Of a stretch of 64,000 nucleotides of DNA, positions 8,797 to 60,205 are shown piece by piece. The notes beneath the pieces are model-generated. The model saw nothing but the letters and a program-made list of their open reading frames with translations. It searched no databases and was not told the origin of the DNA. Made by a program: the position numbers and the translations under genes. The stretch spans positions 31,598,107-31,662,106 of the forward strand of contig JALGQZ010000009.1 of the NCBI GenBank assembly GCA_023105745.1, read 5' to 3'. How positions within the stretch are numbered: position 1 is the stretch's first letter; each line of letters starts with the position of its first letter. This DNA comes from Austropuccinia psidii. Taxonomy: Eukaryota > Basidiomycota > Pucciniomycetes > Pucciniales > Sphaerophragmiaceae.

Positions 8797-8976
8797 ATTG
8801 ATAAACTCTGACAATACACATATATTCAGTAATCCTGTTTAATCGTTTTCAAAAATTTAATCATTCATAAGATTATCATTCTGAGCTTTTTTTCTGATTT
8901 TATTTATTTTACTTCTTGACCTTATTTTTGTTGACTATTTTTTTTCTGAATCAAATCATATATCAATCAGTAAAGA
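8797..8976. other. Short unassigned spacer, ends in TSD of element A
   Basis: AT-rich spacer between the solo LTR and element A with no gene visible. Its last five bases AAAGA (8972-8976) are the left target-site duplication of element A; the right copy is at 19260-19264. Confidence 0.7.
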
Positions 8977-10898
8977 TGTAAGATGTGACTATGAAACTGG
9001 TGATAATATTACTATTAATCAACAGTACTATGTCTGTTCTTATGAAATATAATAATAAAATATTATTATAACCACAATTAAATAATTCAAAAATTATTTC
9101 TTTCACGTGTTAAGCACTACTAGTGATTTTAACAGTGAGAAAGTAATTGTCTACAAGAATCAATTACAAGAAGAATTTAATAATAAAAACTTCTTTATTA
9201 AAATCATAAAATTATTTTAATATATAATTATCTTTTGCAAGAATAATTATAAAGATAATTCTTGAAGAAAACTATTACTAGAGAAAAACTTTAAGAATTA
9301 AGAATAAATGACTCACTAATACTCCAAAGAACTTATTGATAGATAAGAGTAGAGAAATTTGACGTAGAATTGTGGATTTAAGGGATCAAAAAGATTTATA
9401 ACAGTATTACAACAATATATAGTTGGATTCTATGATTTCACGTCTTTCAGGATGATTTTGAAAGATTTAAAACACTTAAGAATAGCTTTAACTAATACTT
9501 ACTTGTTGGTAATAATGATTTAATAAATTGATAAGATGATGATACGGAAAAAACAGCAAGAATAGGCTTCTTTTAAGTCAACAACAGCTCACAGAGGCGT
9601 GCCATGGAGCAAACTGAAAAACAAGTGAGTGAGAAAACAATAAACCCTTTTGGATTAATGATTGCATCATCTGTTGTCACGTAAGATTATCATAATTACT
9701 TAATTGATGCTTTTACGTGACTACCAACCCCAATATGGTTAAGAATAAAAGGAGTAACATCTGTAAATCTTCTTTTATTCTAAAATAATCATTGATTTCT
9801 CAAAGTTATCAATGTTATTGCCAATTTCATCACAGGTTGTAATTACTGTGATTTTTTGAAGATTCAGTGTTTCACGTAGAATGGTCAAAAATGGACTTTA
9901 AGTAAAACTTTTAATTTTACTAGTAAAACCATAATTCTTTTTGGTTGTACCATAGATAATACAGCTCTTCATTGGTCCTGAAAGTTTCAGGAATATTCAT
10001 TAAGAATTGTATTTTTAATGAATTTTTGAAGTTTTTACCTCATTTCTACATAGAATTGCAAATAGCAGTATTTTGCTGGTTGCTATGAGGTAAATCAATG
10101 AATATGGATCCCAAAAGGGTTTAATTACTCTTTTAGAGTCTAGTCATGGAAAGTCATCAAGAATTGACATGGTTACAGGAGCCTAAGTAGCTTATTACCT
10201 CCTTGGCACGTCAAAATAGCAGGTTATTTGCTATTTTTCTTATGATTACAGTAGGTGTAACTTGGTAACCAAGTTCCCAAAGAGTTTTAGTTTACCAATT
10301 GGGCCAAGATGAGCCATGGATTCATGCTCTGGAGCTATCCACGCCTCTGAGGCCTCAGAAGTTGGGTACCCTGGCTCTCTTTGATGTCTTTTGTCCCCCT
10401 TGCCTAATTTTTACGTCAAAATAGTAATTTAAGCTTAAAGTGAGATATCCACTATGGGTGTACCAAAAGTCCATGTAAGAATACCATGATATTAAGTGCT
10501 CAAAACATGCATAACACTATTCTTAGTGTATATGTAACATGGGATTTCTCACTTTCCCATTATTTTGGCTAAAAATCAAGAAAAACAAAAAATTTCACGG
10601 ATCTTTTATGTGGTATTAATGATGTGGTATTGAAGTATTTTCCATTTTACCACCTCAAATACTTAAATTGAGCTTATTCACTCTATGGAGCTACCCTAGG
10701 TGAATTTTTGTGTAGAACCCAAATCTGGTCTTAAATCCATGGATTTACTTACTCAATAAAAAGTTATTCATCTTTCCTGAAATTGAAAATGATGAATTTT
10801 GGATATATGAATGACTTATGAGTTTTGCATAATTCAAAATTTCTTTTTAAGATAATTGTGGCCTATTTGGGTATGTAAAATATACCTCAAGGCTCACA
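8977..10898 (-). repeat. Element A 3' LTR
   Basis: 1922 bp, TGTAAGATGTG at its left edge and CAAGGCTCACA at its right edge. In sense orientation it therefore starts TGTGAGCC and ends CTTACA. It contains many ACGT words, a 9-bp inverted pair GTCACGTAA (9676-9684) / TTACGTGAC (9713-9721), a CTGAGGCCTCAG palindrome near 10349, and a local duplication of ATGTGGTATT around 10608-10634. The last of these is shared with the 5' LTR but is missing from element B and the solo LTR. Confidence 0.96.
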
Positions 10899-10910
10899 TT
10901 CCCTCCCACC
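10899..10910 (-). promoter_or_regulatory. Polypurine tract of element A
   Basis: In sense orientation GGTGGGAGGGAA directly abuts the 3' LTR start TGTGAGCC. This is the expected position and composition for the RNase H-resistant plus-strand primer. The same tract is present in element B (46431-46442), and a close variant in element F (62187-62200). Confidence 0.85.
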
Positions 10911-11037
10911 AAAAAATAAAATTGTACTACAATTTTATTAGTGAAAAAAGAATAAGGCCCCAAAGGGGGTAATGTCCACTGTCCAACCTCTTCACATTAC
11001 TCAGATCAAGTAATTTAAAGCACATTTATAGACATAT

Positions 11038-12804
11038 TCAGGCTTGTGGCCTTCTTTCATGTCTAAATCTTCTTAAGAGTTTATCTGAGTCAGGTATTTC
11101 TGATTCTGCCATCCATTCATCTTCATGTACTGGATTTCTATATCTGACAAGATATTCTCTTTGATTTTTACCCCTAAGTCTCCTTTCTTTAATGACTTTA
11201 TTTATCTTTTTGTCTTCATTCTGTTCCACAGGTGGTACAGTTAAAGGAGTTGGGTTTCTTAAGGGAAACAATTCTTTGTCAGCTGGTTGATAAGGCTTTA
11301 TCAAGCTGACTGGAAATGTGGGGTGTTTATTTTCCAATTCACCACTCAATTCCACTTGAACTGCATTGGTTCCATGTAAAGCAACAATAACAAAAGGTCC
11401 TACATAAGAATCTTTAAGTTTCTTTGGGCCTTTGATATTATTAAAAGTCAAGGTTGAAACTAGAACTAAGTCCCCTTTTTTGAAGTCTGGTACTTTATGA
11501 CTCTTGTCCCACTTCTGTTTTGCATAATCAAAAGCATCATCCATACTCTGTTTTGCATGGTGTTTTACTTTATCTAGCATTAATTTGAAGCTGGAAGCTG
11601 TAGGATGAATGTCAATCAAGTCTTTCCTCAGTGTGTCTGCTGGGAGTCTTGGATTCCATCCTTTTTCTAACATAGCAGGAGTTTGTCCTGTGGAAGAGTG
11701 GACTGATGTCTTGTATGCCAATTCTAATGCAGGTATTAGAGTGCACCAGTCATGGGTAAAGCCATCTGAGTCTTTGAATTCTAATCCATAAGCACAAAAT
11801 CTCCTGATCATGTCTTCTAAAGTTTGAATCATCCTCTCTGCTAGCCCATCTGTTTGAGGGTGATATGCTGTAGAGAATGATAACTTAGTCCCAAACAATC
11901 TATGAAGATTGGTCCAAAGTGCAGATGTGAATTTGGGATCTCTGTCACTTATGATATTCTTAAATAACCCTGTATGAGAAATAACTCTACTCCATAAAAG
12001 AAGAGCTGTATCCATAGCAGTGTCATCTTTATGACATGGTAATAATATGGGAGTTTTGCTATATCTGTCTACAATGACTAAACAAGCATTATAACTTTTG
12101 TCACCACTTGGAGGAAGTGCTGTGACCCAATCCATGTGAACAACTTCCCAAGGGGATTTTGGTTCTTGAATATGGATCATCAATCCAAATTTCTTGCCTG
12201 TACTCCTGTTTGCTTTTTGGCATCTATCACAGGTATGGCAATATTCAATGGTTTCTTTTCTCCAAGATGGCCACCATGCACAGTTCTTCACCTTTTCAAG
12301 TGTTCTGTCTTCTGATAGGTGTCCAGAGTAAATGCTATCATGGCATTCATGAAGAATGGTATTGATAAGCAATCTACTACACAGTGTCATCACACAAGAA
12401 TGCTTTGTTCTATGGTAAATAATCCCATCAAACAAGTGAAATCTTCGTTCAGAATAGGAATTTTTCCAAACTTCATCAAGTGCATTAACTAAAGATGTAT
12501 CTTTGCAGTCTTTATCTAATAAAGAAGTCAAGATATGGCAATTCTTGTCTTGTTTATAAGACTCTCTGACCTCTTCAAAGAATTCAGTCCCAATATCAGT
12601 TATGTTAATTCCTTCAATTGGAATCTGTGGTTCAGCTTCCAAAGGTACATAAGCTGGGTTATCAGGAGTGTTGGCTAAAGCCCATCTACTAAGTCCATCA
12701 GCATTCTTGTGAATGTTTCCTGCTTTATGAACTATAGTCATGTTTCCTCTATATTCTTGAATGGCTATTTGCCATCTCAACATATGTCTGTTGGGAGTTT
12801 TCAT
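11038..12804 (-). CDS. pol: RNase H end, integrase and chromodomain-like tail, element A
   Basis: 588 codons. Residues 1-41 finish RNase H (KNADGLSRW). The integrase zinc-binding region uses His155, His162, Cys192 and Cys195. The catalytic triad is Asp225 (HMDW), Asp287 (ISDRD) and Glu323 (LAERM), with exactly 35 residues between the last two. [11 protein letters not shown]...[12 protein letters not shown] module follows. The last 60 residues (KERRLRG...[10 protein letters not shown]...DEW) match the core pattern of a chromodomain, which in chromoviruses targets integration to marked chromatin. The stop at 11038 is shared with B and is taken as the natural end of pol. Confidence 0.95.
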
Positions 12805-12813
12805 GTTAAGAAG

Positions 12814-14025
12814 TCATTTGACGGCATTACAGTCAGTTATCACTTCAAAACCACTGCCATCAAGATAATAGTGTAGTTTCTCAAGTGCCCATACCAAACA
12901 TAAGCACTCCATTTGGCTTGCACCATATCTGGCTTCTGTTGGTTTGATTTGTCTTGAGATATAACAAACTGGTCCTTCTGTAGGTTTGTCATCAATAATT
13001 TGGACTTGATGTAGGGCTTCCCCTAATCCATCTCCACATGCATCAATGTACAATTTAAAAGGAATATTCCAGTCAGGCATGAGGAGTAAAGGTGCTTCTG
13101 TAAGGGCTTTCTTTATCTTCTCATAAGCTTTAATTCTTTCCTGTGTCATCTCAAATACAGTCTGTTGATCACAGATTCTATAAAGTGACTTGGCTAGAAT
13201 TGCAAATTCTTTCAAGTGCTGCCTATAATAACTGGCAAACACAAGAAAATACATCATTTCTTTTTCATTATGGGATATTGGCTTAAGTAACACTGCTGCT
13301 ACTTTATTCTTGTCAATACCCAAGCTCAAACCAGAAACAACATGTCCTAATGCTTTGAGTTCTTCAAAACAAAAATTGCATTTCTTAAGTGAAATTTTCA
13401 TGTTCACTTCTGCAACTTTATGAAGTACTCTTGCAAGTCTTTCAAGGTGCAAAGACCATGAGTCAGAACATATAATAATATCATCAATATAAATGATAAG
13501 CCATCCTTCAGACAATTCTGTGGGGAAGATGGTATTCATCATTCTTTGATAATGAGATGGAGCATTTTTAATGCCAAATGGCATTCTAAGATACTCAAAA
13601 ATGCCACAGTGGGTGATAATTCTAAGTAATTTCTTTTCTTTAGGCGTCAAAACATTTTGATGAAAGCCTTTCAATGCATCCATTGATGTTATATACTTTG
13701 CTTTAGAAAATTGAGTCAAGGTTTCTTGAATTCTAGGGATTGGATACCTATCTGGAACTGTGTAGGTATTCAAAGCTCTAAAATCTCCAACCATTCTTGA
13801 CTTATCATTATGCCATGCAATAATAACAGGTGTTGTCACTTCAACTTCCTCATTATGGCCTACTTTCCTTAGCACACCAAGTTGGATCAACTCTTGGATA
13901 TGTTTTTCCAAGGCCTCTCTAGCTCTGGGACTGGCTGGATAAGCTGGTCTTCTAAGTACTGGAGGATATGGTCTGTCAATATTAACAGTAATATCAACTT
14001 CATGTCCTCTTATAGTGCCTAATGG
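12814..14025 (-). CDS. pol: Reverse transcriptase and RNase H segment, element A
   Basis: Open from just after the TAA at 14026 to the TGA at 12811-12813. Counting from 13911, the reverse transcriptase shows the [19 protein letters not shown] block (43-61), MRMPFG-like LRMPFG (108-113) and the catalytic YIDD at 141-144. RNase H follows with Asp290, Glu335 (ASQMEC) and Asp360 (VITDCNAVK), the usual D-E-D set. The frame stops in the middle of RNase H by a TCA-to-TGA change, and the domain resumes in the next segment. It would copy genomic RNA into DNA in the particle. It is very close to the matching segment of B (47203-49446). Confidence 0.95.
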
Positions 14026-15354
14026 TTAATTATCAGAGGCAAATGCATTTTTATATGTGTATAACACATTAATAAGCTCATTCCTCATCTTTGGTGACAA
14101 TGATTGATTAATTTGTGCTTCAACAAGTTGATTAGTCACAAATTCATCTTTGTAAGTATCCTTGACAGAAGATACTACAGATATCTGTTTTGGCATATTG
14201 GAGAAAGCAAATTTTTGTCTCTTGTTATCTCCAATTGTGAAATATCTATCTTTATGGTTATTTATACCAATACCATAAATATTCAAGTAATCATTTCCAA
14301 GAATGATGTGCTGAGATGTGCAATTATCCATTACTACAATCTCAGTTTTCATTCTTACACTTCCTGCTGGATGTGGGAATACAATATTAGTGTCCAATAT
14401 GCCCAAAGGGTACATATTGTTACTGGCACTACTGAGTTGTACACCTTCTATTGGTAATAGATGGTTTTTCCATTCAGGAAGTATAATTTGGAGATAATCT
14501 TTGCCAACACAAGTGCAAAATGCCCCTGTATCCAAATTTACTTTGGCTTCAATATCACTCATCAGAACTGATGTGATAGAGGATGCTCCAGCAGTATAAC
14601 CCTTTCCTCTAGCAGGTTTTGTTTTACACATTCTGGCATCTTGGATATTGATCAGGTTGCAGCAATCTTCACTGTACTGTGGCAAGTTGGTATGGACTTC
14701 TGTGACCTCAAAGAAAGCTGAAATGTTTTCAATGGGATAGTCCTCCACTGGTGTATCTTCAGAGACTGCAGAATCTTGATCAGACTCCTCTTTCTCTTCA
14801 GTACACTGAATTTCTTCAATGACTTGAACTTCATTGATTTTTGTCTTCTTAGGACAAGTGTTGGCCAAATGTGAAGTACTTCCACATTTATGACACTTCA
14901 AGACAGGTCTTTCTGGTCTTCTTTCCTCTCTAGGAATCTTTGAGACTATTTTGGACTCTGTTGGGTTTTTAATCCAAGTTTTACCAATTCTTGTCCTGGT
15001 AATGATATCTTCCATAGCATTAATGTAGTCCTCTGTTGAACAAGGTTCCACACATCTGCTTTTGATAGCATGTTCCAATTCTCCTCCACACTTTCTTAAT
15101 ATTTTCATATTAATCATAGTGTCAGACATATCTGGGTGTAAAGCAGATAATCTGTCTTTTTGTTTGAAGAACCAAGTAAGTGGTTTGTCTTTTTCTGAGT
15201 TAAAAATGGCACTTTCAAAAGCATTCTCCATTTTAAACCTCCAAGAATTATTGGCCCATTTGGTAATCACTTCAGATTTCCACCAAGACCAGTCATGTTT
15301 ACCATGATCAATCCTCATTTTGTAATACCATTTCTTTGCAGTTTTGGTAAACAA
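14026..15354 (-). CDS. Gag C-terminal, zinc knuckle and protease segment, element A
   Basis: A 442-codon open stretch. Residues 1-115 hold the Trp-rich Retrotrans_gag core (KKWYYKM...LTWFFKQKDRL). Residues 154-167 are a CCHC zinc knuckle, CHKCGSTSHLANTC (CX2CX4HX4C), which would bind RNA. An acidic linker follows. The aspartic protease has its catalytic DTGA at 275-278 and the IILGNDYL flap-side motif near 360. The frame ends at TAA 14026-14028, where element B reads CAA (Gln), so this is a nonsense mutation and not the natural end of Gag. The first codon is internal; upstream residues continue in the gag frame across the 15368 frameshift. Confidence 0.9.
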   Translation of the reverse strand: MFTKTAKKWYYKMRIDHGKHDWSWWKSEVITKWANNSWRFKMENAFESAIFNSEKDKPLTWFFKQKDRLSALHPDMSDTMINMKILRKCGGELEHAIKSRCVEPCSTEDYINAMEDIITRTRIGKTWIKNPTESKIVSKIPREERRPERPVLKCHKCGSTSHLANTCPKKTKINEVQVIEEIQCTEEKEESDQDSAVSEDTPVEDYPIENISAFFEVTEVHTNLPQYSEDCCNLINIQDARMCKTKPARGKGYTAGASSITSVLMSDIEAKVNLDTGAFCTCVGKDYLQIILPEWKNHLLPIEGVQLSSASNNMYPLGILDTNIVFPHPAGSVRMKTEIVVMDNCTSQHIILGNDYLNIYGIGINNHKDRYFTIGDNKRQKFAFSNMPKQISVVSSVKDTYKDEFVTNQLVEAQINQSLSPKMRNELINVLYTYKNAFASDN

Positions 15355-16739
15355 ACAGTGTAATTTTCCACTATGATTTCATCAGGTATATTAAAGTCTT
15401 CTTGCAACATATCAATAGTTCTGATGAATTCAATATGGTTATATTCTCCTTCACCAGAGAATGTTGGCCATTCTTCTATTTTGGGAATATCTCTTGCAGA
15501 GTAGGCATTTTCTCCTAAGAATGGAGTCAAACTTTCTTTGACAGAAAGTTTTTCTTCAGTCAAAGGTGTAGAATGTCTTGGCATATGTGGTTCATGATTC
15601 TTATGAATTTGCTCCACACTTGCAATTATATCATTCTTCAATTTCTGCCTTTCACTGTCACTTTTTGCTAAATGTATAGCAAATTGATTGGTGTTCTTAA
15701 CTATTTGTAAGACATGGTCTTCAAGAGTTTTAAGTCTATCATTTACTTTAAAAATGGAAGGATCCTCTGTGTCATTATTTTGACATTGGGTCTCAATTCT
15801 TTCACAAGAATTGCTAATTGACTCAAGGGTGACAGTTGTCACTTGATGCCAATAAGAATGTTGCTTGTCATTTTTCTTTAAATCATTGATGTCTAATGTA
15901 ATTTGCTTTAACTTTGACTCAAGTTTGCCAATTTCTACACTAATACTTCTATGTACATCATTTATTTGCGTGGAAAAGTCCTGTTCATCCTTTCCTGCTC
16001 CTTGGCTGTGAATTCCATAAGAGTTCTGGCCATATTGAAGACACTGTCCACGGCTGAAGGCTCCAATTTGGGGATCCTGTACCCTTGTGGGTAAGGTCTG
16101 TGCCAATTGGCTTTGCCTTTGCCCTTGCCTTGATGGTTCTTGGGACCTCTCTGTTTCTTTTGAGGTCCTTTGGGCTTGTCCTTGGGCGCTTCTGGAGCTG
16201 GTTTGGAGCTGGTAGATGCCACTGGTGCCTCTGTCTCCAAAGCTGGAGTCATTTCCAACTCTTTCTTCTGGTCTATGGATAAAAGACTTTGGTTCTTCAA
16301 CCAATTCTTTATCTTTTTGACCTTGTCTTTGCAAGACAGGGGGCTCCATCCTCCTAAGAGTTCTATGGTCTTCTCCTGACCCAGAAAGCTCTTGATGTGT
16401 AAGTAGGAGTTCATGGCCCCCTGCCAAAGGCTTGGGCAGATTTCCCACTCCTCTTCCTTGGCTGCTCTGAACCAGTTTTTGTACTGGCATTGATATATTT
16501 CTATTGCTGCCACCTGAAAGTGGTTCAGCCCTGGAAATATTACCATAAATCAGTTCAGGCTCAGAATTTACGTCAAAATCTGTTGGTACAGACCTTGGGG
16601 AATGGGGGGCAACTCTGGCATCCTCCAGATGTGTCTTTCTTGTGGAAGATTTGGCACTTCTGGATTTGGTCTTGCCTCTTCCTTGTCCACATCCATCTGG
16701 TTGGACTGAATAGTTGCTTCCATTTCTGGTATGCACCAT
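15315..16739 (-). CDS. gag: Gag N-terminal segment, element A (gag frame)
   Basis: ATG at 16739 opens the gag frame, with B and E starting at the homologous codon. The first 250 or so residues are disordered, rich in Gly, Gln, Ser and Arg, and lie over a second reading frame (see 15962-16723). They are followed by a Lys/Asp/Ser-rich helical stretch likely to be coiled coil. After that comes a conserved segment with EEWPTFSGEGEYNHIEF, which precedes the Retrotrans_gag-like core. A one-base deletion near 15368 throws the frame off into a short false tail ending at 15315. The structural role in particle assembly is inferred from position and from the following zinc knuckle. Confidence 0.85.
   Translation of the reverse strand: MVHTRNGSNYSVQPDGCGQGRGKTKSRSAKSSTRKTHLEDARVAPHSPRSVPTDFDVNSEPELIYGNISRAEPLSGGSNRNISMPVQKLVQSSQGRGVGNLPKPLAGGHELLLTHQELSGSGEDHRTLRRMEPPVLQRQGQKDKELVEEPKSFIHRPEERVGNDSSFGDRGTSGIYQLQTSSRSAQGQAQRTSKETERSQEPSRQGQRQSQLAQTLPTRVQDPQIGAFSRGQCLQYGQNSYGIHSQGAGKDEQDFSTQINDVHRSISVEIGKLESKLKQITLDINDLKKNDKQHSYWHQVTTVTLESISNSCERIETQCQNNDTEDPSIFKVNDRLKTLEDHVLQIVKNTNQFAIHLAKSDSERQKLKNDIIASVEQIHKNHEPHMPRHSTPLTEEKLSVKESLTPFLGENAYSARDIPKIEEWPTFSGEGEYNHIEFIRTIDMLQEDFNIPDEIIVENYTVCLPKLQRNGITK
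15962..16723 (-). CDS. Overprinted second gag-region protein (ORF2), predicted to be spliced
   Basis: This frame lies +1 relative to gag. It opens at ATG 16723, 16 bases after the gag ATG, and ends at 15962. Two in-frame stops near its start fall inside a GT-AG segment at 16531-16593 (63 bases); without that segment the frame codes for about 232 residues. The product is Trp- and Lys-rich and looks folded. There is an EIYQ...NWF helix region, MNSYL, an ELLGGW turn and IKNWLK, then a Pro/Lys/Gly-rich basic linker, then a conserved end with NVFNMARTLMEF. Element E has the same frame at 58868-59371 with roughly half of the residues identical by eye, clearly better than the overlapping gag frame. 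The function is unknown; the basic tail suggests RNA binding or a capsid role. Confidence 0.72.
16531..16593 (-). other. Predicted intron inside ORF2 (63 nt)
   Basis: The minus-strand sequence starts GTCTGT, contains the branch-like CTGAT about 20 bases before the end, and ends TTTCCAG. Removing it deletes both stop codons of the ORF2 frame and keeps phase, because 63 is a multiple of three. Element B has the same GT and AG edges at 52084-52146 (63 nt). Element E has a GT...TAG segment of 69 nt at 58737-58805, also a multiple of three and also containing the ORF2-frame stops. Confidence 0.6.
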
Positions 16740-16790
16740 TTTCACGTCAATTTAAAGATAAAAGGTGAAAATATAAGATAAAATACACAC
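16726..16790 (-). other. Predicted intron that contains the gag start codon (65 nt)
   Basis: The minus-strand sequence starts GTGTGT, has TTGAC as a possible branch site, and ends ATACCAG. The gag ATG (16739-16737) lies inside it. Removing it joins the open leader exon 16791-16950 in frame to ORF2. The same structure occurs in B at 52279-52343 (65 nt) and in E at 58541-58602 (62 nt, GTGAAT...CTACTAG), again with the gag ATG 11 to 13 bases before the acceptor. Confidence 0.55.
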
Positions 16791-16950
16791 CTTTTGGTGG
16801 TAATTTAGCTTTTTCTGAGTTGAATAAAGTGCCTCTTTTAGCAATCTGCACCTCAATACTGTCTTCAGATTCTGCTTCTGAAGATTCTGGACTATTGATG
16901 TATCTTTTAGTGAGTCTGTTACCAGCTGCACAGTATTTGATTAAAGACAC
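16791..16950 (-). CDS. Predicted leader exon read in frame with ORF2
   Basis: An open stretch of about 53 codons without its own ATG, rich in Ser, Glu and Lys (SPESSEAESED), lying just upstream of gag. On its 5' side is a pyrimidine tract ending TTTAAG, a good splice acceptor, also seen in B (TTTTTAG) and E (TTCTCTAG at about 58435). Its 3' edge AAAG|GTGTGT is a donor. If both are used, it continues directly into the ORF2 frame. The start codon would then lie in a further upstream exon, not identified. In B the exon has a one-base loss (GGTAACAG to GGAACAG). Homology with E is visible at SS-SEA-like residues. Confidence 0.45.
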
Positions 16951-17319
16951 TTAAAGAAAAAAAAATATGATAAAAGAAATTATTTTTGTGTTTTAAGATA
17001 TTTTTTAAAAGATTTTTTATGAATTTGATTATTTTTTAATATTAAAAAAATTATTCTTTTTAAAGAAAAAAATTAAAATTTAAGATTTTGAATGAAAATT
17101 AATTCAGAGTAACTCAAAGAATAATTTTATAAGTTTTTGGATGTGAAAAAGCCACGTGTAAAAACAGTATAAAATTAAACCAAATTCCTCAATGAAAAGA
17201 TTTTCAAAACAATTTCAAAAATAAGAATTATTTTAACTTTAAAATGAAAGAAAAAATTATTAAATTAATATATTTTAGAGCTTAAAAATATATTAATTAA
17301 GGGTACAAGGTTCAAAAAA
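16951..17319 (-). other. Element A untranslated leader
   Basis: About 370 bases of very AT-rich sequence between the 5' LTR and the leader exon, with no ORF. Its downstream edge is a pyrimidine-rich stretch ending TTTAAG (sense orientation), the proposed splice acceptor. The matching region in B (52505-52870) is closely similar. Confidence 0.6.
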
Positions 17320-17337
17320 CACGGCCAGCCCCCCAAA
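17320..17337 (-). promoter_or_regulatory. Candidate primer binding site, element A
   Basis: In sense orientation the bases next to the 5' LTR read TTTGGGGGGCTGGCCGTG. A TGG two bases inside the LTR edge suits pairing with a tRNA CCA end. B (TTTGGGGGCCTGGCCGTG) and E (TTTGGGGTCCTGGCTGTG) keep the pattern. I could not assign the tRNA. Confidence 0.55.
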
Positions 17338-19259
17338 TGTAAGATGTGACTATGAAACTGGTGATAATATTACTATTAATCAACAGTACTATGTCTTTGC
17401 TTATGAAATATAATAATAAAATATTATTATAACCACAATTAAATAATTAAAAAATTATTTCTTTCACGTGTTAAGCACTACTAGTGATTTTAACAGTGAG
17501 CAAGTAATTGTCTACAAGAATCAATTACAAGAAGAATTTAATAATAAAAACTTCTTTATTAAAATAATAAAATTATTTTAATATATAATTATCTTTTGCA
17601 AGAATAATTATAAAGATAATTCTTGAAGAAAACTATTACTAGAGAAAAACTTTAAGAATTAAGAATAAATGACTCACTAATACTCCAAAGAACTTATTGA
17701 TAGATAAGAGTAGAGAAATTTGACGTAGAATTGTGGATTTAAGGGATCAAAAAGATTTATAACAGTATTACAACAATATATAGTTGGATTCTATGATTTC
17801 ACGTCTTTCAGGATGATTTTGAAAGATTTAAAACACTTAAGAATAGCTTTAACTAATACTTACTTGTTGGTAATAATGATTTAATAAATTGATAAGATGA
17901 TGATACGGAAAAAACAGCAAGAATAGGCTTCTTTTAAGTCAACAACAGCTCACAGAGGCGTGCCATGGAGCAAACTGAAAAACCAGTGAGTGAGAAAACA
18001 ATAAACCCTTTTGGATTAATGATTGCATCATCTGTTGTCACGTAAGATTATCATAATTACTTAATTGATGCTTTTACGTGACTACCAACCCCAATATGGT
18101 TAAGAATAAAAGGAGTAACATCTGTAAATCTTATTTTATTCTAAAATAATCATTGATTTCTCAAAGTTATCAATGTTATTGCCAATTTCATCACAGGTTG
18201 TAATTACTGTGATTTTTTGAAGATTCAGTGTTTCACGTAGAATGGTCAAAAATGGACTTTAAGTAAACCTTTTAATTTTACTAGTAAAACCATAATTCTT
18301 TTTGGTTGTACCATAGATAATACAGCTCTTCATTGGTCCTGAAGGTTTCAGGAATATTCATTAAGAATTGTATTTTTAATGAATTTTTGAAGTTTTTACC
18401 TCATTTCTACGTAGAATTGCAAATAGCAGTATTTTGCTGGTTGCTATGAGGTAAATCAATGAATATGGATCCCAAAAGGGTTTAATTACTCTTTTAGAGT
18501 CTAGTCATGGAAAGTCATCAAGAATTGACGTGGTTACAGGAGCCTAAGTAGCTTATTACCTCCTTGGCACGTCAAAATAGCAGGTTATTTGCTATTTTTC
18601 TTATGATTACAGTAGGTGTAACTTGGTAACCAAGTTCCCAAAGAGTTTTAGTTTACCAATTGGGCCAAGATGAGCCATGGATCCATGCTCTGGAGCTATC
18701 CACGCCTCTGAGGCCTCAGAAGTTGGGTACCCTGGCTCTCTTTGATGTCTTTTGTCCCCCTTGCCTAATTTTTACGTCAAAATAGTAATTTAAGCTTAAA
18801 GTGAGATATCCACTATGGGTGTACCAAAAGTCCATGTAAGAATACCATGATATTAAGTGCTCAAAACATGCATAACACTATTCTTAGTGTATATGTAACA
18901 TGGGATTTCTCACTTTCCCATTATTTTGGCTAAAAATCAAGAAAAACAAAACTTTTCACGGATCTTTTATGTGGTATTAATGATGTGGTATTGAAGTATT
19001 TTCCATTTTACCACCTCAAATACTTAAATTGAGCTTATTCACTCTATGGAGCTACCCTAGGTGAATTTTTGTGTAGAATCCAAATCTGGTCTTAAATCCA
19101 TGGATTTACTTACTCAATAAAAAGTTATTCATCTTTTCTGAAATTGAAAATGATGAATTTTGGATATATGCATGACTTATGAGTTTTGCATAAGTCAAAA
19201 TTTCTTTTTAAGATAATTGTGGCCTATTTGGGTATGTAAAATATACCTCAAGGCTCACA
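17338..19259 (-). repeat. Element A 5' LTR
   Basis: 1922 bp, the same length as the 3' LTR and differing at about 18-20 positions by eye with no net indel. On the plus strand it starts TGTAAGATGTGAC and ends AAGGCTCACA, followed by target duplication AAAGA (19260-19264). It should hold the promoter of the element; the ACGT-containing inverted pair is near 18037-18082. Confidence 0.96.
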
Positions 19260-22899: not shown

Positions 22900-23455
22900 T
22901 TACAACCACAAATGATCAACAACCAAAAAACTTAATTTACTTCAAATTTGGTGCTTTGCCAAATAAAAGTTTGTAATTGCCTTTTCCACTCTTATTTATT
23001 CTTACATGGAAGAAATTTGCGGTGTTTCCTATTTATCCCCATATATCCTTTGCAGTATGGACCCAACTTGCATAGGCCTGCATTTTGTCATTAGATTTCT
23101 ATTTAATCTTTCAATAATTCTATTGTGCTGTGGAGTGTAAGGAGTAGTAGATATGTGAGTTATTCCCTTTTCTGAAAATAACCTCTTGATTTCACTATTT
23201 CCAAATTCCTTTCCCCGGTGCCGAATAATTGTTTTACAATCCTTTCTATCTTTTTTCCATGATCCTGATTATCTCCATTAGGTGGTCTGTTTAATCACTT
23301 TTTTCTCTAACCTTCATACCCAAGAAAGCCTTGTGTCATTATCAACTACAGCCAGTACATAAATAGCACATCCTATTGTTTATGGAGATATTGGACCCAT
23401 CAAATCAACCAATATCTCAACCAAGAATTGACCAGTATGTTCAATTGTTCATTTT
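22900..23455 (-). pseudogene. Copia integrase remnant
   Basis: Downstream of the protease on the minus strand, near 23420-23380, is a readable FLVEILVDLMGPISP segment that corresponds to the start of the integrase catalytic core, with the first Asp in VDLMGP. It is followed by a stretch reading IYVLAV(V)D-like with several stops. Further pieces down to about 22900 can be matched only in scattered frames. This reading depends on position between protease and reverse transcriptase as much as on sequence. Confidence 0.6.
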
Positions 23456-23893
23456 AAAGAATTTTGTGTTCCCTTCTCTGACTTTTGTGCTTCACAATTA
23501 CCCAATTTCCAATTTTGTCCTAATTTTTCATTCTCAGCTATAAACAACTCTTTATTGTTCAATTGTAAGTGTAATAATTCATTCTCAATTGATTCATATG
23601 ATATGAAGTTGTTATACTTCTTAATACTGAAAGTATCATTTCTTTCTTTCTTCGAATATGCTCCTTGTTTCCATATCTGCAATAGAGAAACCAAACTATA
23701 TGGTAGCTTTGGTACTAGTAGTGCATTATTGAAGCTTATAATATTATTATTACTCCTTTTTCTAACAGTTACTTTTCCTTCAATTGGGTTTTTAAAACCT
23801 TCTTGGCATATTTGAACTCCACCACTTGCATCTTCTAGTCTTATGAAATCATTCCTGTCTGTGAACATGGGATCATTAGCTCCTGAATCCAGG
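23449..23893 (-). pseudogene. Copia protease and linker remnant, cut by element D
   Basis: An open minus-strand frame that starts inside the LTR of element D and enters genuine copia sequence at 23893: WLLHLDSGANDPMF, with DSGA as the catalytic triad of the aspartic protease. It is followed by the conserved VTVRKRSNNNIISFNNALLV-like region and the LVSLLQIWKQGA motif that closes the domain. The Gag-pre-integrase segment then runs to a stop at 23449. The true upstream part of the frame continues at 33995, on the far side of element D. The first residues of the open frame belong to D and are not copia. Confidence 0.85.
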
Positions 23894-24653
23894 TGTAACA
23901 ACCACTCACCAGGGGCAAGGGTATTCATCAATACAGACACTAAAACACCTCAAATCAGCAGATCCACTATCTGCATCAGCATTCAGTTTCAGCAATCTTC
24001 CTTGCTGAAACATGAATACAGCTTGGTACTTCAATACAGCCTGTCAACATCTGTACAGGTTGGATTCACCCAATACAGTTTCAATACACCAGCATGAAAC
24101 TGTATGATCACTCAAATACACCACACCTCTTGTACAGGCTCTGTACAGCTGTGCAGGACCTGTATTGGCCAGACTCAATTCAATCATTCAATCCTCTCAT
24201 GAAAATTCCTACTCTGGATCAGGGCTGGGGATTCTCACATATACCAGCCCCTCTTTCTCCCCCTGGGGACTTTTCCCCAGTTAATTAATTTAGTTATTTA
24301 TTATTTTATGAATATTCTTATCCTTATTTTGGGTATTATATTTATTTAATATCAAGTTAGCCTTTGCATTTCTCTCTTTGCCTGTACAGTATGAGTTGGG
24401 TGGCCATATCCTTATTAACCCTTCTCTTTTCATTCTGACAGGTTGAAACAGTGGACTTGGACTTGTTTGTGGTTGGCTCTTCTATTATTTACTCTTATTT
24501 CTTTTGTTGCTTCTTTCTTATATTCTTTATTTTAGTAATTCATCTCTTGCACTCTTAAGTGTATTCCTTCTTACCATATCTTTGAGCCCTCCATAAGTGA
24601 GTCCCGGTTTAATGAGTGCCAGGCCCTCTTCACTTTGAAGAGCCCCTGTGACA
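23894..24653 (+). repeat. Element D 5' LTR
   Basis: 760 bp, starting TGTAACAACCACTCACC and ending AGCCCCTGTGACA. Its 3' half (from the TATA-like ATATA at 24239 onward) resembles the LTR of element C, while its 5' half does not. It is about half the length of the C LTR (1540 bp). Confidence 0.94.
24239..24292 (+). promoter_or_regulatory. Candidate core promoter and self-primer segment of element D
   Basis: ATATA at 24239-24243 lies about 38 bases before CAGTTAATTAATTTA (24278-24292). Element C keeps the same order: CACATATAC, then CTTTTCCCCAGTTAATTAATATA. The 14 bases 24279-24292 are perfectly complementary to 24655-24668, just inside the LTR. This is the arrangement known from self-priming chromoviruses such as Tf1, where the first bases of the RNA prime reverse transcription. 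The transcription start is inferred, not seen. Confidence 0.5.
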
Positions 24654-25409: not shown

Positions 25410-26774
25410 CATAATGCCAGTTCAGCATACTCCCCCAGCAAAGAAAACTAGATCCCAAAAATTCCAGCTGTTCTCACTCCTACAGCAAGGGCTCCTCTTC
25501 ACCGCACACCATCAGTTCATTAACTGAGTGCAAACTTGGACAGAGGACCACCAATGGAAGGAGCAGCACCCTCAAGAAGAGGTGGAATGAAATATAGAAG
25601 ATCAAGATCCTTTTCTGGACTTTTGGGTGGCTACCCTGGCATGTCTGAAGGTGCAAGAGCAAGATTAGGGGAAGTTGAAGATGAAGAGGGGGAAGAGTCT
25701 GTGGAAGAGGAAGATTCTGGGGAGACTGAAGTGGCAGAAGCCTTTACAAATGCTCCAGAGGTGCCTCAGAGTTCTAATATAGCCCTTTCTAGTCAACCTC
25801 TTGTCTCTCAAACTGATCCAAGTCTTCTCAAGATGATGTAGCAGATGACTCAATTCATAGGGCAACTCACTCAAGCAGTTGCTCCCAGAGACAATTCCAA
25901 AGCCCCTGCTTTCAAGACTCCATCCATGAAGGCACCTGATTCTTTTGATGGTACTCAAGCTCATAAATTGCGAGGATTTATCCAATCCTGTCAATTAATC
26001 TTCCATAATGATCCAGCGAACTCCTTCTCTGACAGGAAGAAAGTTCTTTACTCAGCTTCTTTTCTCACTGGTAGAGCTGGAAAGTGGATTGAAACCTATC
26101 TCTCAAATATTTTCAATGAAGACCCTTCTTATCTCCTCAAAAATTGGCCATTATTTGAATCCCAATTATTTATTCTGTTTGGTGACCCCAATGAAGTCAG
26201 GAAAGCTGAACAAGAGTTGGACAATTTGAGGATGAAGGAAAGTGGTCATGTATCCTTGTACATTGCTGACTTCAGAAGCTTAATGTCAAGAATTGGAGAT
26301 TGGGGGGAAAGAGCTTATATCCATGTTTACAGAAGAGGATTTGCATCAAGATTATTGAATCAGTTGGCCCCTCACCCTGGAACTTTTGATACTCTTCAAG
26401 AACTTATTGATGTCACTTTAGAATTACACACAAGATATCATGAGAGGCAAAAAGAAAAGGGTGGCAATCAAGAGAAGAAGCCTCCTGTCAATTGATCCAA
26501 TCAGTCTAGGCCTCCTCAAAACTCATCTTCAAAGAGGCCTCACCAAAAGAAGAACAAGAAGGGCAAGCAGTTCCAATCTTCCAAGGAAAAGCCTCATGCT
26601 GCTCTCCTAAATAAGGACAATAAATTAATTGGTTCTGAAAAGGAGAGGAGGATTAAAGAGGGTTTGTGTACTTATTGTGGTGGAAAGCCCCCAATTGAAA
26701 AATGCTTCAAGAGACCTCAGAACAAGCCTGGGTCATCATCAAGAGGCTTCCCTAGCAAGCAGGGAAAAGCCTGA
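25410..26774 (+). pseudogene. gag: Element D gag
   Basis: Starts at ATG 25410 (MPVQHTPPAKKTRSQ, matched by C). A frameshift follows near 25457. An acidic Ser/Glu-rich region covers 25536-25841, then an in-frame TAG at 25839. The Retrotrans_gag core follows (FDGTQAHKLRGFIQSCQLIF through FRSLMSRIGDWGERA to DVTLELHTRYHERQ). A TGA at 26493 interrupts a basic linker. The zinc knuckle region near 26670 reads CTYCGGKPPIEKC, where the histidine kept in C is replaced by Pro. The natural end is TGA 26772-26774, one codon after the slippery heptamer. Gag would package the RNA. Confidence 0.88.
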
Positions 26775-26806
26775 GTGGGTATCATGATGTGTTCAATGGT
26801 TCTCAC
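26762..26806 (+). promoter_or_regulatory. -1 ribosomal frameshift signal between gag and pol, element D
   Basis: The gag frame reads G GGA AAA GCC TGA at 26762-26774. Slipping back one base on GGGAAAA gives GGG AAA AGC CTG, which is exactly the open pol frame. After a 6-base spacer, bases 26775-26781 can pair with 26800-26806 around an 18-base loop. Element C has an identical heptamer, spacer and stop (41896-41908) and a stronger 7-bp stem. Confidence 0.7.
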
Positions 26807-27706
26807 TTATTTCCTTCAAGAGCACAATTGTGCACTCTGAATACTAGTGTCAAGAAATCTTTAAAGTTTCTTATTTTCTCTTCTGCCTCTGATATTTTTT
26901 ATAGTATTCTCATTGATGCTGGTGCTATAAACTCCTTTATTGCAAAGACTTTTGTTCTCAAGTAATCATTGACTCTGTCAGAGCTCCCTGAAAATATTCC
27001 TCTTTTCATTCTGGATTCTCATGAATCCCCTGCCTTGCTCATCACCCATTATACCAAGTAGGTAGTTGGCTTGCCTTCCTTCCCAAGCTTTGAATGGGAC
27101 TTCTTTATCATAGATTCACCCAAGGGAGAAGACCTGATATTGGGCTATGATTTCCTTTACCACTTTAAACCCATTATTGATTGAAAAAATGGATTGATCA
27201 TCTATGATTCTAGTCATAAAGATCCTAGTGGTATTATTCCTTCTACTAGTAATGACTTCTCCACTGCTGTAAACAGTGTTGTTCTGGTTGGTGAGCTTAA
27301 GACACCTTCCCTTCCTTCTTCTGTCCATATCCCTTCCATCATTCCCTCTCAGTCATTACTTCCATTAAGAGATGAAGTCTTCAAAGAGATAAAGGATATT
27401 GGAGAAGATGTTGCTATATCTTCACTTCATCTATTTCAAGGGGATATGGACCTTCCTCTTTTATCTTTTCATGCCTCCCTGGAGGAGCAGTGGGAGGAGA
27501 AGGAAGAGCCAGAAGAAATTGAAACTGTGTTGAAGGTAGTCCCCCCTGTTTATCACCAATATTTGGATGTATTCTCCAAGGTGAAAGCAGAGAAACTTCC
27601 TCCACACCGTGCCTGTGATCATCATATTGAATTGGAGGGTCTTCTACCTCAAATTGGTGTTATCTACTCATTATCAAATCAAGAGTCAGAAACACTACGG
27701 GCCTAA

Positions 27707-51514: not shown

Positions 51515-52276
51515 TTATTTGTGTGTAAAAGTCCTGTCCATCCTTTCTTGTTCCTTCGCTGTGAATTCCATGAGAGTTCTGGCCATGTTGAACACGCTGT
51601 CCACTGCTGAAGGCTCCAATTTGGGGATCCTGTACCCTTGTGGGTAAGGTCTGTGCCAATTTGCTTTCCCTTTTCCCTTGCCTTGATGGCTCTTGGGACC
51701 TCTCTGCTTCTTCTGAGGTCCTTTGGGCTTTACTTTGGATACTTCTGGAGCTGGTTTGGAGCTGGTAGACGCCACTGGGGCCTCTGTCTCCAAAGATGGA
51801 GTCATTTCCAGTTCCTTCTTCTGGTCTATGGATAAAATACTTTGGTTCTTAAACCAATTCTTTATCTATTTGACCTTGTCTTTGCAAGACAGGGGGCTCT
51901 ATCCTCCTAAGAGTTCTATGGTCCGCTCCTGACCCAGAAAGCTCTTGATGTGTAAGTAGGAGTTCATGGCCCCCTGCCAAAGGCTTGGGCATATTTCCGA
52001 CTCCTCTTCTTTGGCTGCTCTGAACCAATTTTTGTACTGGAATTGATATATTTCTATTGCTGCCACTTGAAAATGGTTCAGCCCTGGAAATATGGTCATG
52101 AATCAGTTCAGGCTCAGAATTCACTTCAAAATCTGTTGGTACAGACTGTGGGGAATGGGGGGCAACTCTGGCATCCTCCAAATGTGTTTTTGTTGCGGAA
52201 GACTTGGCACTTCTGGATTTGGTCTTGCCTCTTCCTTGTCCACATCCATCTGGTTGGACTGAATAGTTGCTTCCAT
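51515..52276 (-). pseudogene. Overprinted ORF2 of element B, one nonsense change
   Basis: Same +1 frame as in A. ATG at 52276, predicted intron 52084-52146 (63 nt), open to near 51897, where TGG (Trp) has become TAG, then open again from 51805 to 51515. The same G-to-A change alters only Met to Ile in the overlapping gag frame. The C-terminal GKGKGKANWHRPYPQ and NVFNMARTLMEF motifs match A. The predicted upstream intron is 52279-52343 and the leader exon about 52344-52503. Confidence 0.7.
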
Positions 52277-52885
52277 TTCTGGTATGCACCATTTTCACAT
52301 CAATTTATAGATAAAAGGTGAAAATATAAGATAAAATACACACCTTTTGGTGGTAATTTAGCTTTTTCTGAGTTAAATAAGGTGCCTCTTTTAGCAATTT
52401 TCACCTCAATACTGTCTTCAGATTCTGCTTCTGAAGATTCTGGACTAGTGATATATCTTTCACTGACTCTGTTCCAGCTGCACAGTATTTGATTAAAGGC
52501 ACTAAAAATTATAAAAGAGAAAACATTTTTTTTATTCTTTTTTAAAATATTTTTTAAAGATTTTTTATAAGTTTTATATTTTTTAATATTAAAAGAATTG
52601 TTCTTTTTAAAGAAAAAAATTAAAATTTAAGATTTTGAATGAAAATTAATTCAGAGTAACTCAAAGAATAATTTTATAAGTTTTTGGATGTGAAAAAGCC
52701 ACGTGTAAAACAGTATAAAATTAAACCAAATTCCTGAATGAAAAAGATTTCCAAAACAATTTCAAAAATAAGAATTATTTTAGCTTTAAAATGAAAGAAA
52801 AAAATTATTAAATTAATATATTTTAGAACTTAAAAATATATTAATTAAGGGTACAAGGTTCAAAAAACACGGCCAGGCCCCCAAA

Positions 52886-57896: not shown

Positions 57897-58588
57897 ATTT
57901 AAACCAATTTTTGGGAGATAAATCATATTCTAGACCTGATTTTATTGTTTTTTGACCTAAAATTGCTATATTTGCTTTAATATTGGCTCTTCTGGGACTT
58001 ATCCCTTATAAATAATCTTTATAATATTGATAAAGTTATTTTCTCTAAAGAATATTGTTTGAAACAATATACTATTGAGGGACTTGGAATAAATTTCTTT
58101 TGTCTAACTAGTGGCCTTTTCACATCACAGACTTGAAATTTATTCTTTGAGCTATTCTAGTATAAAGTGAATAATAATACAATTTTGATTAATAGCTTAT
58201 TAATTGCATAATCATTATTTCTTTGAAGAAAATATAAAATCAAATAAAAAATTTGAAAATTAAAAGTCTTTACTAAGAACATTTTTTCTTCAATCTTAGA
58301 AATTTTGCTTTATTTTGGACGTAATTTGCCATAAATTACATTAAAACAACTTTATCCGATAAGTTTAGTTTATAGGTTATTGTTATTGTTTGATAGAATA
58401 ACTTATAATTTTCTTTTTCTCTAGTGTCATCCATCAGAGAAAGCTCTTCAGACTCTGAAGCCTCAGAGTTAGTATTTAAATTCAAACTAGCCCAGCACCG
58501 AGGGGTTTAATTACCAAATAACCCTTTAAAGGGCCAGAAGGTGAATTCAATTCATTTCTAAGTCTTAATTGATTTATATTGACTTGAA
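57897..58588 (+). other. Element E leader, with predicted acceptor and leader exon
   Basis: A pyrimidine tract ending TTCTCTAG at about 58435 is followed by an open Ser/Glu-rich stretch up to AGAAG|GTGAAT (donor at 58541). One in-frame TAA lies within it. A predicted intron at 58541-58602 covers the gag ATG (58589). The arrangement matches A and B. The rest is AT-rich without features. Confidence 0.5.
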
Positions 58589-60205
58589 ATGCCTCCTACT
58601 AGAAGTGGAAGTAATAATCCATCCAATTAAATGGATCTGGACCAGGACATTCAAATCATAAATCCAAAAGACAGAAAGGTCAGCACAGAGGAGAGGCACA
58701 AATGGCGGATGCCAGAGCTTCCACCAGTTCCCAAATGTTAGCCAGCACCTTTGACACTTTTATTGAAATTCCACAAGCTGAAATAACTGCTATTGCTGTT
58801 GTTAGCCCTGAATCACTTTTAACAGGCAACAATAGAGATATACCAGTCTCAGTACAAGAACTGTTTTATGGCAGCAAAACAGAAAGAGTGGGAACTTCTC
58901 TCAAATCTTTGGACATGCACCATGAACTCATATCTTCAAGTGAAGAAGTTCATGGGGCCAGAAAAGACAGAAGAGCTTCTGAAGGGTTGGAAACCCATTT
59001 CTTTCAAAGGACGAGTCCAGCAGATAAAAGCTTGGTTGAAAACCCAAAGCATGTTATCAGAGGACCAGAAGAAGAAGTTGGCCCAAGGGAAGGAAAACAG
59101 CCCAGTGGAAGCTCCCCAAGCCTCCAAAAGCAAAAATCTGCCTCAACAAGTTCCAAACAAGCTCAAGAAACCCCCAAAGACCAGCCAGAAGAGCAAACAA
59201 AAGGCAAAGGGAAAGGGAAAGCCCAAGTGGAACAAGCCTTACCCGCAGAATTACAGGATTCCCAATAGAGAGAAGACAGCCATGGACAATGTGTTCAATA
59301 TGGCAAGAACTCTGATGGAGTTCAAAAACAAGGAAGAGGAAAGATTGAACCAATATTTTCCAAATAAGTAGATCTTTTAAAGCCTTTAAACTAAATTGAA
59401 GCTTGTAATAAAGAAATTATAACAAATCTTAACACCTTTGATTATATCCAACAGAAGTTGGGTAATGAGATACTACAAGTGAAAGAGTCACAAAAGACCA
59501 TTGTTGGCCTTGAAAATTTTAATAAAGACAATGTTTTGGCTTTGGCACAAATTTGTGAGAGAATTGAGTCTCAGGTTACCTTACTCAATAAACCAGATGA
59601 TAATTCTATTTCTTTCATAAGTATACAGTTAAAAGAATTAAGAATACAAGTTCAAAACTTGGAAAGCTCAACTGGGAGCAATGCATCTCTTTTCCAAGAA
59701 CAATTGGAAAAAGGTTAGAAAGCAAGACTTGAATTGAAAGAAGATATTCAATCAAGTATCAATAATATATCACTGAAAAATGATTTTCAAAGACAGTCTA
59801 CACCAATTCTTGACAGAAATGTGCTAAACTTGAATAATAACTTACATCATATAATTTCAAGTAATGCAGAAGTGGAAACTGCTCGCAATTTTAAAGAAAT
59901 TCCAAGATTAGAGGAATGGCCAACCTTCAGCGGCTAAGGGGAATATAATCATATGGAATTTATGAAAACAATGGATAGGTTCAAAGAAGACTTTAACATA
60001 CCAGATGAATACATAAGCTCCAGATTAAATTCATTGTTTACCAAATGGGAAAAGAAATGGTATTACAAAACAAGAAAAGACCATGGTAAACATTCTTGGC
60101 TTTGGTGGAAAGAACAAATTAATTCCAAATGGGAAAATGATTCCTGGAGATTTAAAATGGAGAATTCTTTTGAAGATGCCATTTTCAATATTGAGAGGGA
60201 CAGGC
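58589..60205 (+). pseudogene. gag: Element E gag, interrupted by F
   Basis: ATG 58589 (MPPTRSGSNN, like MVHTRNGSNY of A). One base is lost soon after relative to A. From 58702 the gag frame is open to 59268, and after stops it continues in the same frame through 59458-59718, 59734-59937 (EIPRLEEWPTFSG) and 59953-60205 (KKWYYKTRKDHGKH, the Retrotrans_gag core). It is broken off by F exactly where A reads SEKDKPLTWF. Because no frame change occurs along 1.4 kb, E shows the ancestral gag frame best. Nonsense codons at 59266, 59716 and 59935 inactivate it. Confidence 0.85.
58868..59371 (+). CDS. Overprinted ORF2 of element E
   Basis: 167 codons open in the +1 frame relative to gag. The homology to A actually begins upstream at EIYQSQYKNCF (about 58835), after a TAA that replaces the CAG of A. 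Shared motifs are MNSYL, EELLKGW, IKAWLKTQS, DQKK, a KGKGKPKWNKPYPQNYRIP tract and NVFNMARTLMEF, ending FPNK. Length and end point agree with A (FPRK). A GT...TAG segment of 69 nt (58737-58805) corresponds to the intron of A. Conservation between copies this old is the main reason to regard ORF2 as a real gene. Its role is unknown. Confidence 0.7.
   Translation: MAAKQKEWELLSNLWTCTMNSYLQVKKFMGPEKTEELLKGWKPISFKGRVQQIKAWLKTQSMLSEDQKKKLAQGKENSPVEAPQASKSKNLPQQVPNKLKKPPKTSQKSKQKAKGKGKPKWNKPYPQNYRIPNREKTAMDNVFNMARTLMEFKNKEEERLNQYFPNK

What the first reader, a model, noticed from the sequence alone, without database searches (positions are those of the whole stretch)
15962..16950. A second, better conserved protein is overprinted on gag and appears to be made by splicing that removes the gag start codon
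In A, B and E a +1 frame inside gag encodes the same Trp/Lys-rich protein (MNSYL, WLK-QS, NVFNMARTLMEF), in each case starting 16 bases or equivalent after the gag ATG. Two GT-AG segments are conserved in place. One (65, 65 and 62 nt) contains the gag ATG and joins an open leader exon to ORF2. The other (63, 63 and 69 nt, always a multiple of three) removes the ORF2-frame stops. A simple model is that unspliced RNA gives Gag-Pol and spliced RNA gives ORF2, a retrovirus-like switch in a Ty3/gypsy element. Dual coding is seen directly; the splicing is inference.
Basis: partly seen in the sequence, partly recalled or inferred. Interest (0 to 1): 0.92.

Follow-up and report, generated by a model that had tools for sequence, protein, structure and literature searches.

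The report
Spliced protein gene overlapping gag
Abundant jumping genes in a rust-fungus genome carry, in another reading frame over the start of their capsid gene, a conserved extra protein whose message has to be spliced, and the genome preserves copies that look as if made from the spliced RNA.

Summary
The genome (1.015 Gb) is most likely Austropuccinia psidii. ORF2 is open over the 5' part of gag, and three element families (A/B, E, F) share the layout. In the main exon ORF2 is under strong purifying selection. The gag frame there is kept free of stops, but its amino acids are about as variable as those of the unused third frame, so in that exon gag is the passenger.

The splicing, which was inference, now has genomic evidence: copies that lack intron 1, intron 2 or both at the predicted ends. 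Family A: 9 lack intron 1 (one of them one base off) and 8 lack intron 2. Family E: 1 lacks intron 1, none found lacking intron 2. Family F: 2 lack both, including a GC-AG intron named before the search. A pseudo-intron control gave none. They look like reverse-transcribed spliced RNA.

The leader exon evolves as coding sequence in the spliced frame and begins AG|TG in all three families. I infer a further intron from the LTR that builds the start codon A|TG; this is not shown. The mechanism resembles retroviral spliced genes and Cer1 CERV. An RNA-export role is a hypothesis. No RNA data were available.

The parts
8976..19259 (-). Element A, Ty3/gypsy LTR retrotransposon; LTRs 17337-19259 (5') and 8976-10898 (3'), 1923 bp, 99.1% identical
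   Evidence: self-BLAST; Pol domains RVT_1, RNase H, H2C2, rve
17320..17337 (-). Probable primer-binding-site region just inside the 5' LTR
   Evidence: position; inference from place and TGG-rich sequence
17864..17864 (-). Last base (A) of the proposed exon 1 in the LTR, before GTAAGT (inferred donor of intron 0)
   Evidence: A|GTAAGT in A, L001-L008 and L040-L044, L046, L047 (B reads ATTAAGT; L045 not located; L048 and L049 not examined) and in 26 of 30 E-type loci (2 mutated, 2 not located); not found in the one F copy examined
16950..17863 (-). Proposed intron 0 (914 nt), would remove the rest of the LTR and the primer-binding site
   Evidence: inference; no genomic copy lacking it was found (0 matches with up to 3 mismatches)
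16791..16949 (-). Exon 2 (leader exon), coding in the ORF2-linked frame; begins TG after a T-rich AG
   Evidence: codon-phase constraint
16726..16790 (-). Intron 1 (65 nt, GT-AG), contains the gag ATG
   Evidence: absent from 8 genomic copies L042-L049, and with one base more lost in L040
16737..16739 (-). gag start codon
16594..16725 (-). Exon 3 of ORF2 (overlaps gag)
   Evidence: part of public gene models such as P0002
16531..16593 (-). Intron 2 (63 nt, GT-AG), in frame for gag, holds ORF2-frame stops
   Evidence: absent from 8 genomic copies L040-L043 and L045-L048
15962..16530 (-). Exon 4 of ORF2, main conserved exon, in the +1 frame relative to gag
15315..16739 (-). gag frame of this copy (stops at 15315; in L005 and L008 the frame stays open to the locus end, 763 codons)
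14026..15354 (-). rest of Gag with a CCHC zinc knuckle, continuing towards Pol, in another frame in this copy
51515..52501 (-). ORF2 region of element B (decayed): intron 1 52343-52279, intron 2 52146-52084
58425..59371 (+). ORF2 region of element E: exon 2 from 58425, intron 1 58541-58602, intron 2 58737-58805, exon 4 to 59371

Best explanation
ORF2 is a real accessory protein of a group of Ty3/gypsy retrotransposons, made from spliced RNA. RNA that keeps intron 1 carries the gag AUG, which lies at the 3' end of that intron, and is translated into Gag(-Pol). Splicing introns 1 and 2 removes that AUG and two pieces that would break the ORF2 frame, and joins a coding leader exon to a conserved helical, lysine-rich protein read in the +1 frame of gag. 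A third intron running from a donor in the LTR to the leader exon would build the start codon A|TG, and would also remove the primer-binding site so that fully spliced mRNA cannot be a template. Shown: the conserved ORF2 frame, a gag frame kept open, coding of the leader exon, and loss of introns 1 and 2 at their predicted ends in genomic copies. Inferred: that those copies come from spliced RNA (by far the simplest reading), the LTR intron and split start codon, the mutually exclusive translation, and the function. My best guess for function is a regulator of the unspliced RNA (export or protection from splicing), at about 0.4. The confidence below is for ORF2 being a selected protein expressed through splicing of introns 1 and 2.
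For: Intron-less copies: A-family intron 1 junction in 8 copies, reversed-pattern control 0, six of which also lack intron 2; A-family intron 2 junction in 2 further copies, both with gap 0 although gaps of 0-30 were allowed; E-type intron 1 in 1 copy; F intron 2, a GC-AG intron written down in the notebook before the search and also suggested by public protein P0256, in 2 copies with 0 mismatches, both also lacking the 87-nt intron 1. A 61-nt pseudo-intron of exon 4 with AAG|GT..AG ends gave 0. By eye on the tree, with irreversible loss, each A-family intron was lost at least 5 times. Selection in exon 4: changes silent in ORF2 but not gag run at 0.15-0.82 per site, changes silent in gag but not ORF2 at 0-0.22, in 10 of 11 pairs, which share sequences (the 11th is nearly identical, one change in each of these two classes). 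Leader exon, E-type: 16 of 39 third positions vary against 2 first and 3 second positions of 39 each; dN/dS 0.14-0.26 in the ORF2-linked phase in 6 of 6 pairs, all against L033, and 0.7 or more in the other phases. Public gene models of A. psidii MF-1 remove intron 2 at this place.
Against: No RNA or protein data were examined. The proposed LTR intron has no intron-less copy (0 matches; expected if it removes the primer-binding site, but no support either), and its GTAAGT donor was not found in the F copy examined. E-type intron 2 has no intron-less copy (0 matches each). L040 lacks one base more than the predicted intron 1. Splice sites share a 2-3 base repeat, so a repeat-mediated deletion would give the same product. 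One copy (L070) has an ordinary 42-base deletion inside intron 1. Intron-less copies are few. In exon 3 the substitution classes are mixed: changes silent in gag are the faster class in 5 of 8 pairs, those silent in ORF2 in 3 of 8. ORF2 openness given gag is only weakly unlikely. No fold or family match tells the function.
Confidence: 0.9

Rival explanations
1. The intron-less copies arose by DNA deletion between short repeats at the splice sites, not by reverse transcription of spliced RNA; ORF2 is then read in some other way.
For: The splice sites bring a 2-3 base repeat (AG or AGG) to both ends; ordinary internal deletions do occur, one in intron 1 (L070).
Against: Both introns are missing together in 7 of 10 A-family copies and 2 of 2 F copies. 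With gaps of 0-30 allowed, 2 of 2 and 3 of 4 matches are exact. A pseudo-intron with similar ends gave 0. The GC-AG intron of F was named first and then found absent exactly.
Confidence: 0.03
2. ORF2 is translated from unspliced RNA by leaky scanning or reinitiation, and the splicing is rare noise.
For: In A the ORF2 ATG lies 16 bases after the gag ATG; some public proteins start at M in MNSYL, inside exon 4; intron-less copies are few compared with 2888 candidates in the first look for family A.
Against: Unspliced ORF2 is cut by stops in intron 2 in A, B, E, the E-type copies translated and F. E-type and F copies lack the nearby ATG. The leader exon shows coding constraint in the frame that only splicing links to ORF2. 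Introns 1 and 2 keep their place and GT/GC..AG ends across families that share about 47-59% of exon 4 residues.
Confidence: 0.06
3. ORF2 is a structural particle protein (matrix- or nucleocapsid-like) made from spliced RNA, not a regulator of RNA.
For: Helical N-terminal half and a lysine-rich stretch; it overlaps the gene for the particle protein.
Against: No capsid or nucleocapsid fold appears among the rows shown, which is weak evidence; Gag of the same element already has its own zinc knuckle.
Confidence: 0.25
4. ORF2 is a chance open frame forced by the composition of gag.
For: Given gag, an open ORF2 frame is not very rare (P 0.012-0.122; 0.038-0.042).
Against: ORF2 amino acids are better conserved than the gag ones in 10 of 11 pairs (the 11th is nearly identical) and 3 of 3, and the substitution classes point to ORF2.
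Confidence: 0.01

Closest known systems
Cer1 / CERV of Caenorhabditis elegans (PMC10309623; abstract and passages read)
   Same: Ty3/gypsy element; an accessory protein from a multi-exon spliced mRNA (517 aa, 5 exons) that uses a reading frame of its own in exon 4; unspliced RNA encodes Gag and Pol.
   Different: [quoted passage not shown] Here the protein is encoded at the 5' end, with exons 3 and 4 across gag in the other frame. No sequence comparison with CERV was made. Nuclear export function is shown for CERV, not here.
Multiply spliced regulatory genes of complex retroviruses (Rev, Rex, Rem class; recalled, Rev also in passages of PMC10309623)
   Same: Overlapping frames, several splice sites, unspliced RNA reserved for Gag-Pol.
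   Different: No sequence relation was tested; host is a fungus; an envelope gene was not looked for.
BARE1 of barley (PMC3735527, passages) and Ogre, EVADE and Bagy2 (as cited in PMC12786077 and PMC3735527, passages)
   Same: Plant LTR retrotransposons whose RNA is spliced into subgenomic mRNA.
   Different: As far as the passages say, BARE1 splicing makes Gag-only RNA, Bagy2 env RNA, and Ogre splices between ORFs (EVADE: subgenomic RNAs, kind not stated there); none is described there as switching to a protein overprinted on gag.
sORF1/sORF2 of insect MDG1-group elements (PMC11952523, passages)
   Same: Extra small proteins encoded upstream of gag in LTR retrotransposons.
   Different: Those transcripts showed no evidence of splicing, and sORF2 is a membrane protein.

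Membership tests
Ty3/gypsy LTR retrotransposon | Pol order reverse transcriptase, RNase H, integrase between LTRs | tested here: met
   RVT_1, RT_RNaseH, then Integrase_H2C2, rve; LTRs of 1923 bp
Ty3/gypsy LTR retrotransposon | Gag with zinc knuckle | tested here: met
   C-x2-C-x4-H-x4-C is read directly in 14026-15354; Pfam knuckle hits stay below their cut-offs
chromovirus branch | chromodomain at the end of integrase | tested here: inconclusive
   Chromo 18.8 bits, cut-off 25.1
accessory gene expressed from spliced retroelement RNA (Cer1 CERV type) | protein encoded across introns whose removal is seen | tested here: met
   intron-less genomic copies; no RNA seen
accessory gene expressed from spliced retroelement RNA (Cer1 CERV type) | nuclear protein needed for export of unspliced RNA | not testable with these tools
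   needs cell biology
accessory gene expressed from spliced retroelement RNA (Cer1 CERV type) | sequence homology with CERV or Rev | not tested
   no CERV or Rev sequence was fetched; the ORF2 profile matched no PDB sequence at E <= 1 (0 of 177635)
MIT-domain proteins | three-helix MIT fold | tested here: inconclusive
   [not shown]
retroelement capsid or nucleocapsid | capsid fold | tested here: inconclusive
   none among the rows shown; pTM of the model 0.38

The most novel reading that the evidence does not exclude
A fungal LTR retrotransposon runs a retrovirus-style genetic switch. An LTR exon is spliced to build the start codon A|TG and to drop the primer-binding site, and two further introns remove the gag AUG and restore an overprinted frame. 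The multiply spliced mRNA makes a Rev/CERV-like protein that lets unspliced RNA leave the nucleus. This evolved independently of animal retroviruses, and it belongs to element families that are very abundant in a giant fungal genome.
Probability: 0.35. Interest if true: 0.92.

Novelty: new variant of a known kind. Interest (0 to 1): 0.82.

Why it matters
Splicing-based regulation with overprinted accessory genes is a hallmark of complex retroviruses. Here it appears in a fungal Ty3/gypsy element, with the genome holding copies that record the splicing. That makes it possible to ask when and how often retroelements evolved control of their unspliced RNA. That I saw no such report for rust fungi rests on the listings and passages of PMC8063080 and PMC12210899, in a library without most subscription journals. 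It also explains hundreds of public hypothetical proteins of A. psidii (914 and 543 proteins at E <= 0.001; only the 120 best were listed each time, all of them from A. psidii MF-1, so other species among the rest are not excluded).

Tried and rejected
Tried without result: Pfam and NCBIfam for ORF2 (no match above cut-off). PDB by profile (0). Fold searches in PDB and viral models: only weak helical-bundle matches, MIT-like first, no capsid or nucleocapsid among the rows shown. Viral contigs: 152 stretches matched a pattern, none a relative. Papers for a prior report: none seen for fungi. RNA-seq could not be searched.

Considered and rejected: chance ORF; deletion instead of splicing; the ATG 16 bases after the gag ATG as the shared true start (absent in E-type and F copies). 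Results against: E-type intron 2 junction 0 matches, intron 0 junction 0 matches, no GTAAGT donor at the matching place in the one F copy examined, L040 one base off, one internal deletion among the gap-control matches.

Full report
Where this is. The window lies in an unnamed 1.015-Gb genome. The species is therefore an inference. Element A spans 8976-19259 on the minus strand with LTRs of 1923 bp that are 99.1% identical; Pol domains are those of Ty3/gypsy.

The observation. ORF2 exon 4 (16530-15962) is open in the +1 frame of gag, and the third frame is full of stops. The gag frame runs from ATG 16739, and in two copies about 99% identical to A (L005, L008) it stays open to the end of the locus (763 codons). 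Elements B and E show the same layout, although both are decayed. A further family, F, next to the window (L039) and frequent in the genome, has it too. The first look of the genome searches held 2888 candidates for A DNA and 39410 and 39064 for the E and F proteins, of which 40, 150 and 150 were scored; these are not copy counts. Between families exon 4 of ORF2 shares 57-59% (A with E and E-type) and 47-48% (F with A and with E-type) of residues.

More than chance. Shuffling synonymous codons of ORF2 puts on average 7.0-9.1 stops into the gag frame; the sequences have 0 (A and three E-type copies) or 1 (L010); none of 5000 shuffles was as low in any of the 5 copies. Family F gives 0 against about 5, P 0.0003-0.001 in 3 copies. 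So the gag frame is kept open. Conversely ORF2 is the constrained protein: in exon 4, changes silent for ORF2 but not for gag accumulate at 0.15-0.82 per site, and changes silent for gag but not for ORF2 at 0-0.22, in 10 of 11 pairs; the pairs share sequences, and the 11th is nearly identical. Gag amino-acid identity is about that of the unused third frame: above it in 4, below it in 5 and equal in 2 of the 11 pairs (for A and L014 0.36 and 0.37, where ORF2 has 0.59). In exon 3 both frames show constraint and the balance is mixed, 5 of 8 pairs favouring gag and 3 of 8 ORF2. In intron 2, where only gag could be coding, gag dN and dS do not differ clearly (few changes, 5 pairs).

Genomic evidence for splicing. 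If spliced RNA is sometimes reverse transcribed, the genome should hold copies that lack exactly the introns. It does. Searching the whole genome for the joined exon ends of A-family intron 1 with up to 3 mismatches gave 8 copies, against 0 for the reversed pattern. Six of the 8 also lack intron 2 and two keep it. Searching for intron 2 with 0-30 bases allowed between the flanks gave 2 further copies, both with 0 bases; one of them also lacks intron 1 plus one base, the other keeps it. The same gap search for intron 1 gave 4 matches: 3 exact and one ordinary internal deletion that keeps both splice sites. A 61-nt pseudo-intron in exon 4 with similar ends gave 0. An E-type copy lacks intron 1 exactly and keeps intron 2; none lacking intron 2 was found. 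In family F, I wrote down before the search that intron 2 should be a GC-AG intron of 66 nt, from the frame and from the public protein P0256; the search found 2 copies with that junction and no mismatch, both also lacking the 87-nt intron 1. These two are 97% identical to each other and may descend from one event. On the tree of the A family, counting by eye with irreversible loss, intron 1 was lost at least 5 times and intron 2 at least 5 times without L048, whose place is unreliable. Recombination between packaged RNAs could lower these numbers.

The leader exon and a probable third intron. Exon 2 (159 nt in A, 117 nt in E-type copy L033) is coding in the frame that only intron 1 splicing connects to ORF2: among 30 E-type copies (E included) 16 of 39 third positions vary against 2 and 3 of 39; dN/dS is 0.14-0.26 in 6 of 6 pairs, all against L033, in that phase and 0.7 or more in the others; the A family shows the same tendency (10 of 53 against 2 and 5, 19 sequences, L048 left out). 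It has no ATG of its own in the copies translated and starts with TG directly after a T-rich AG in A, B, 27 of 30 E-type copies and the 16 F loci examined; the decayed F element in L039 reads AG|TT. An upstream exon ending in A would therefore build ATG at the join. A|GTAAGT lies in the LTR of A and of 26 of 30 E-type copies, about 0.9-1.0 kb upstream, but I did not find it at that place in the one F copy whose LTR I fetched, and no copy lacking this intron was found. This intron would remove the primer-binding site, so no ordinary retrocopy is expected. I hold the split start codon at about 0.65.

What the protein may do. The conceptual product of A is 286 residues with 46 Lys or Arg and seven Trp. 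The model of exon 4 is six helices over residues 9-98, a low-confidence stretch, and a long C-terminal helix (mean pLDDT 70, pTM 0.38). No known family or fold was identified. The logic of the gene, a protein that needs removal of the gag start from the RNA while Gag needs its retention, is that of retroviral regulatory proteins, and the nearest worked case I saw is CERV of the Ty3/gypsy element Cer1, made from a spliced five-exon mRNA and required for export of unspliced RNA (PMC10309623, abstract and passages). I propose that ORF2 acts on the unspliced RNA. A structural particle protein is the main rival.

Public annotation. MF-1 gene models already remove intron 2, for example the 232-residue P0002 (24 of the 120 listed ORF2 hits have that length; examples). 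The gag frame is annotated as well, 101 of 120 listed Gag hits matching at least 150 of the 196 overlapped residues. These are predictions, not RNA evidence.

Noticed in passing
window 25845-29632, plus strand: Another Ty3/gypsy element with a recognisable Ty3_capsid and Retrotrans_gag domain, unlike element A of the finding, whose Gag pieces had no Pfam capsid match.
   Followed up: no
window 38710-40720, minus strand: Broken gypsy element (reverse transcriptase, then integrase core).
   Followed up: no
window 23449-23940, minus strand: Fragment with Pol_BBD, which I take for a Copia-type sign (recalled).
   Followed up: no
window 7001 (or earlier) to 8792, plus strand: LTR related to that of element A (83.6% identical) on the other strand; 7001 is where my query began.
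   Followed up: no
L040 near 776 and L042 near 900: By eye, the stretch after the primer-binding site in these A-type copies differs from A and looks like that of the E type, a possible sign of recombination between families.
   Followed up: no
L070 (G000:C2:7800007): A-type copy with a 42-base deletion inside intron 1 that keeps the gag ATG and both splice sites.
   Followed up: no
P0054, P0076, P0092: Public gene models join ORF2 to downstream Gag sequence; possibly decayed copies or gene-finder artefacts, but an ORF2-Gag fusion by splicing was not excluded.
   Followed up: no
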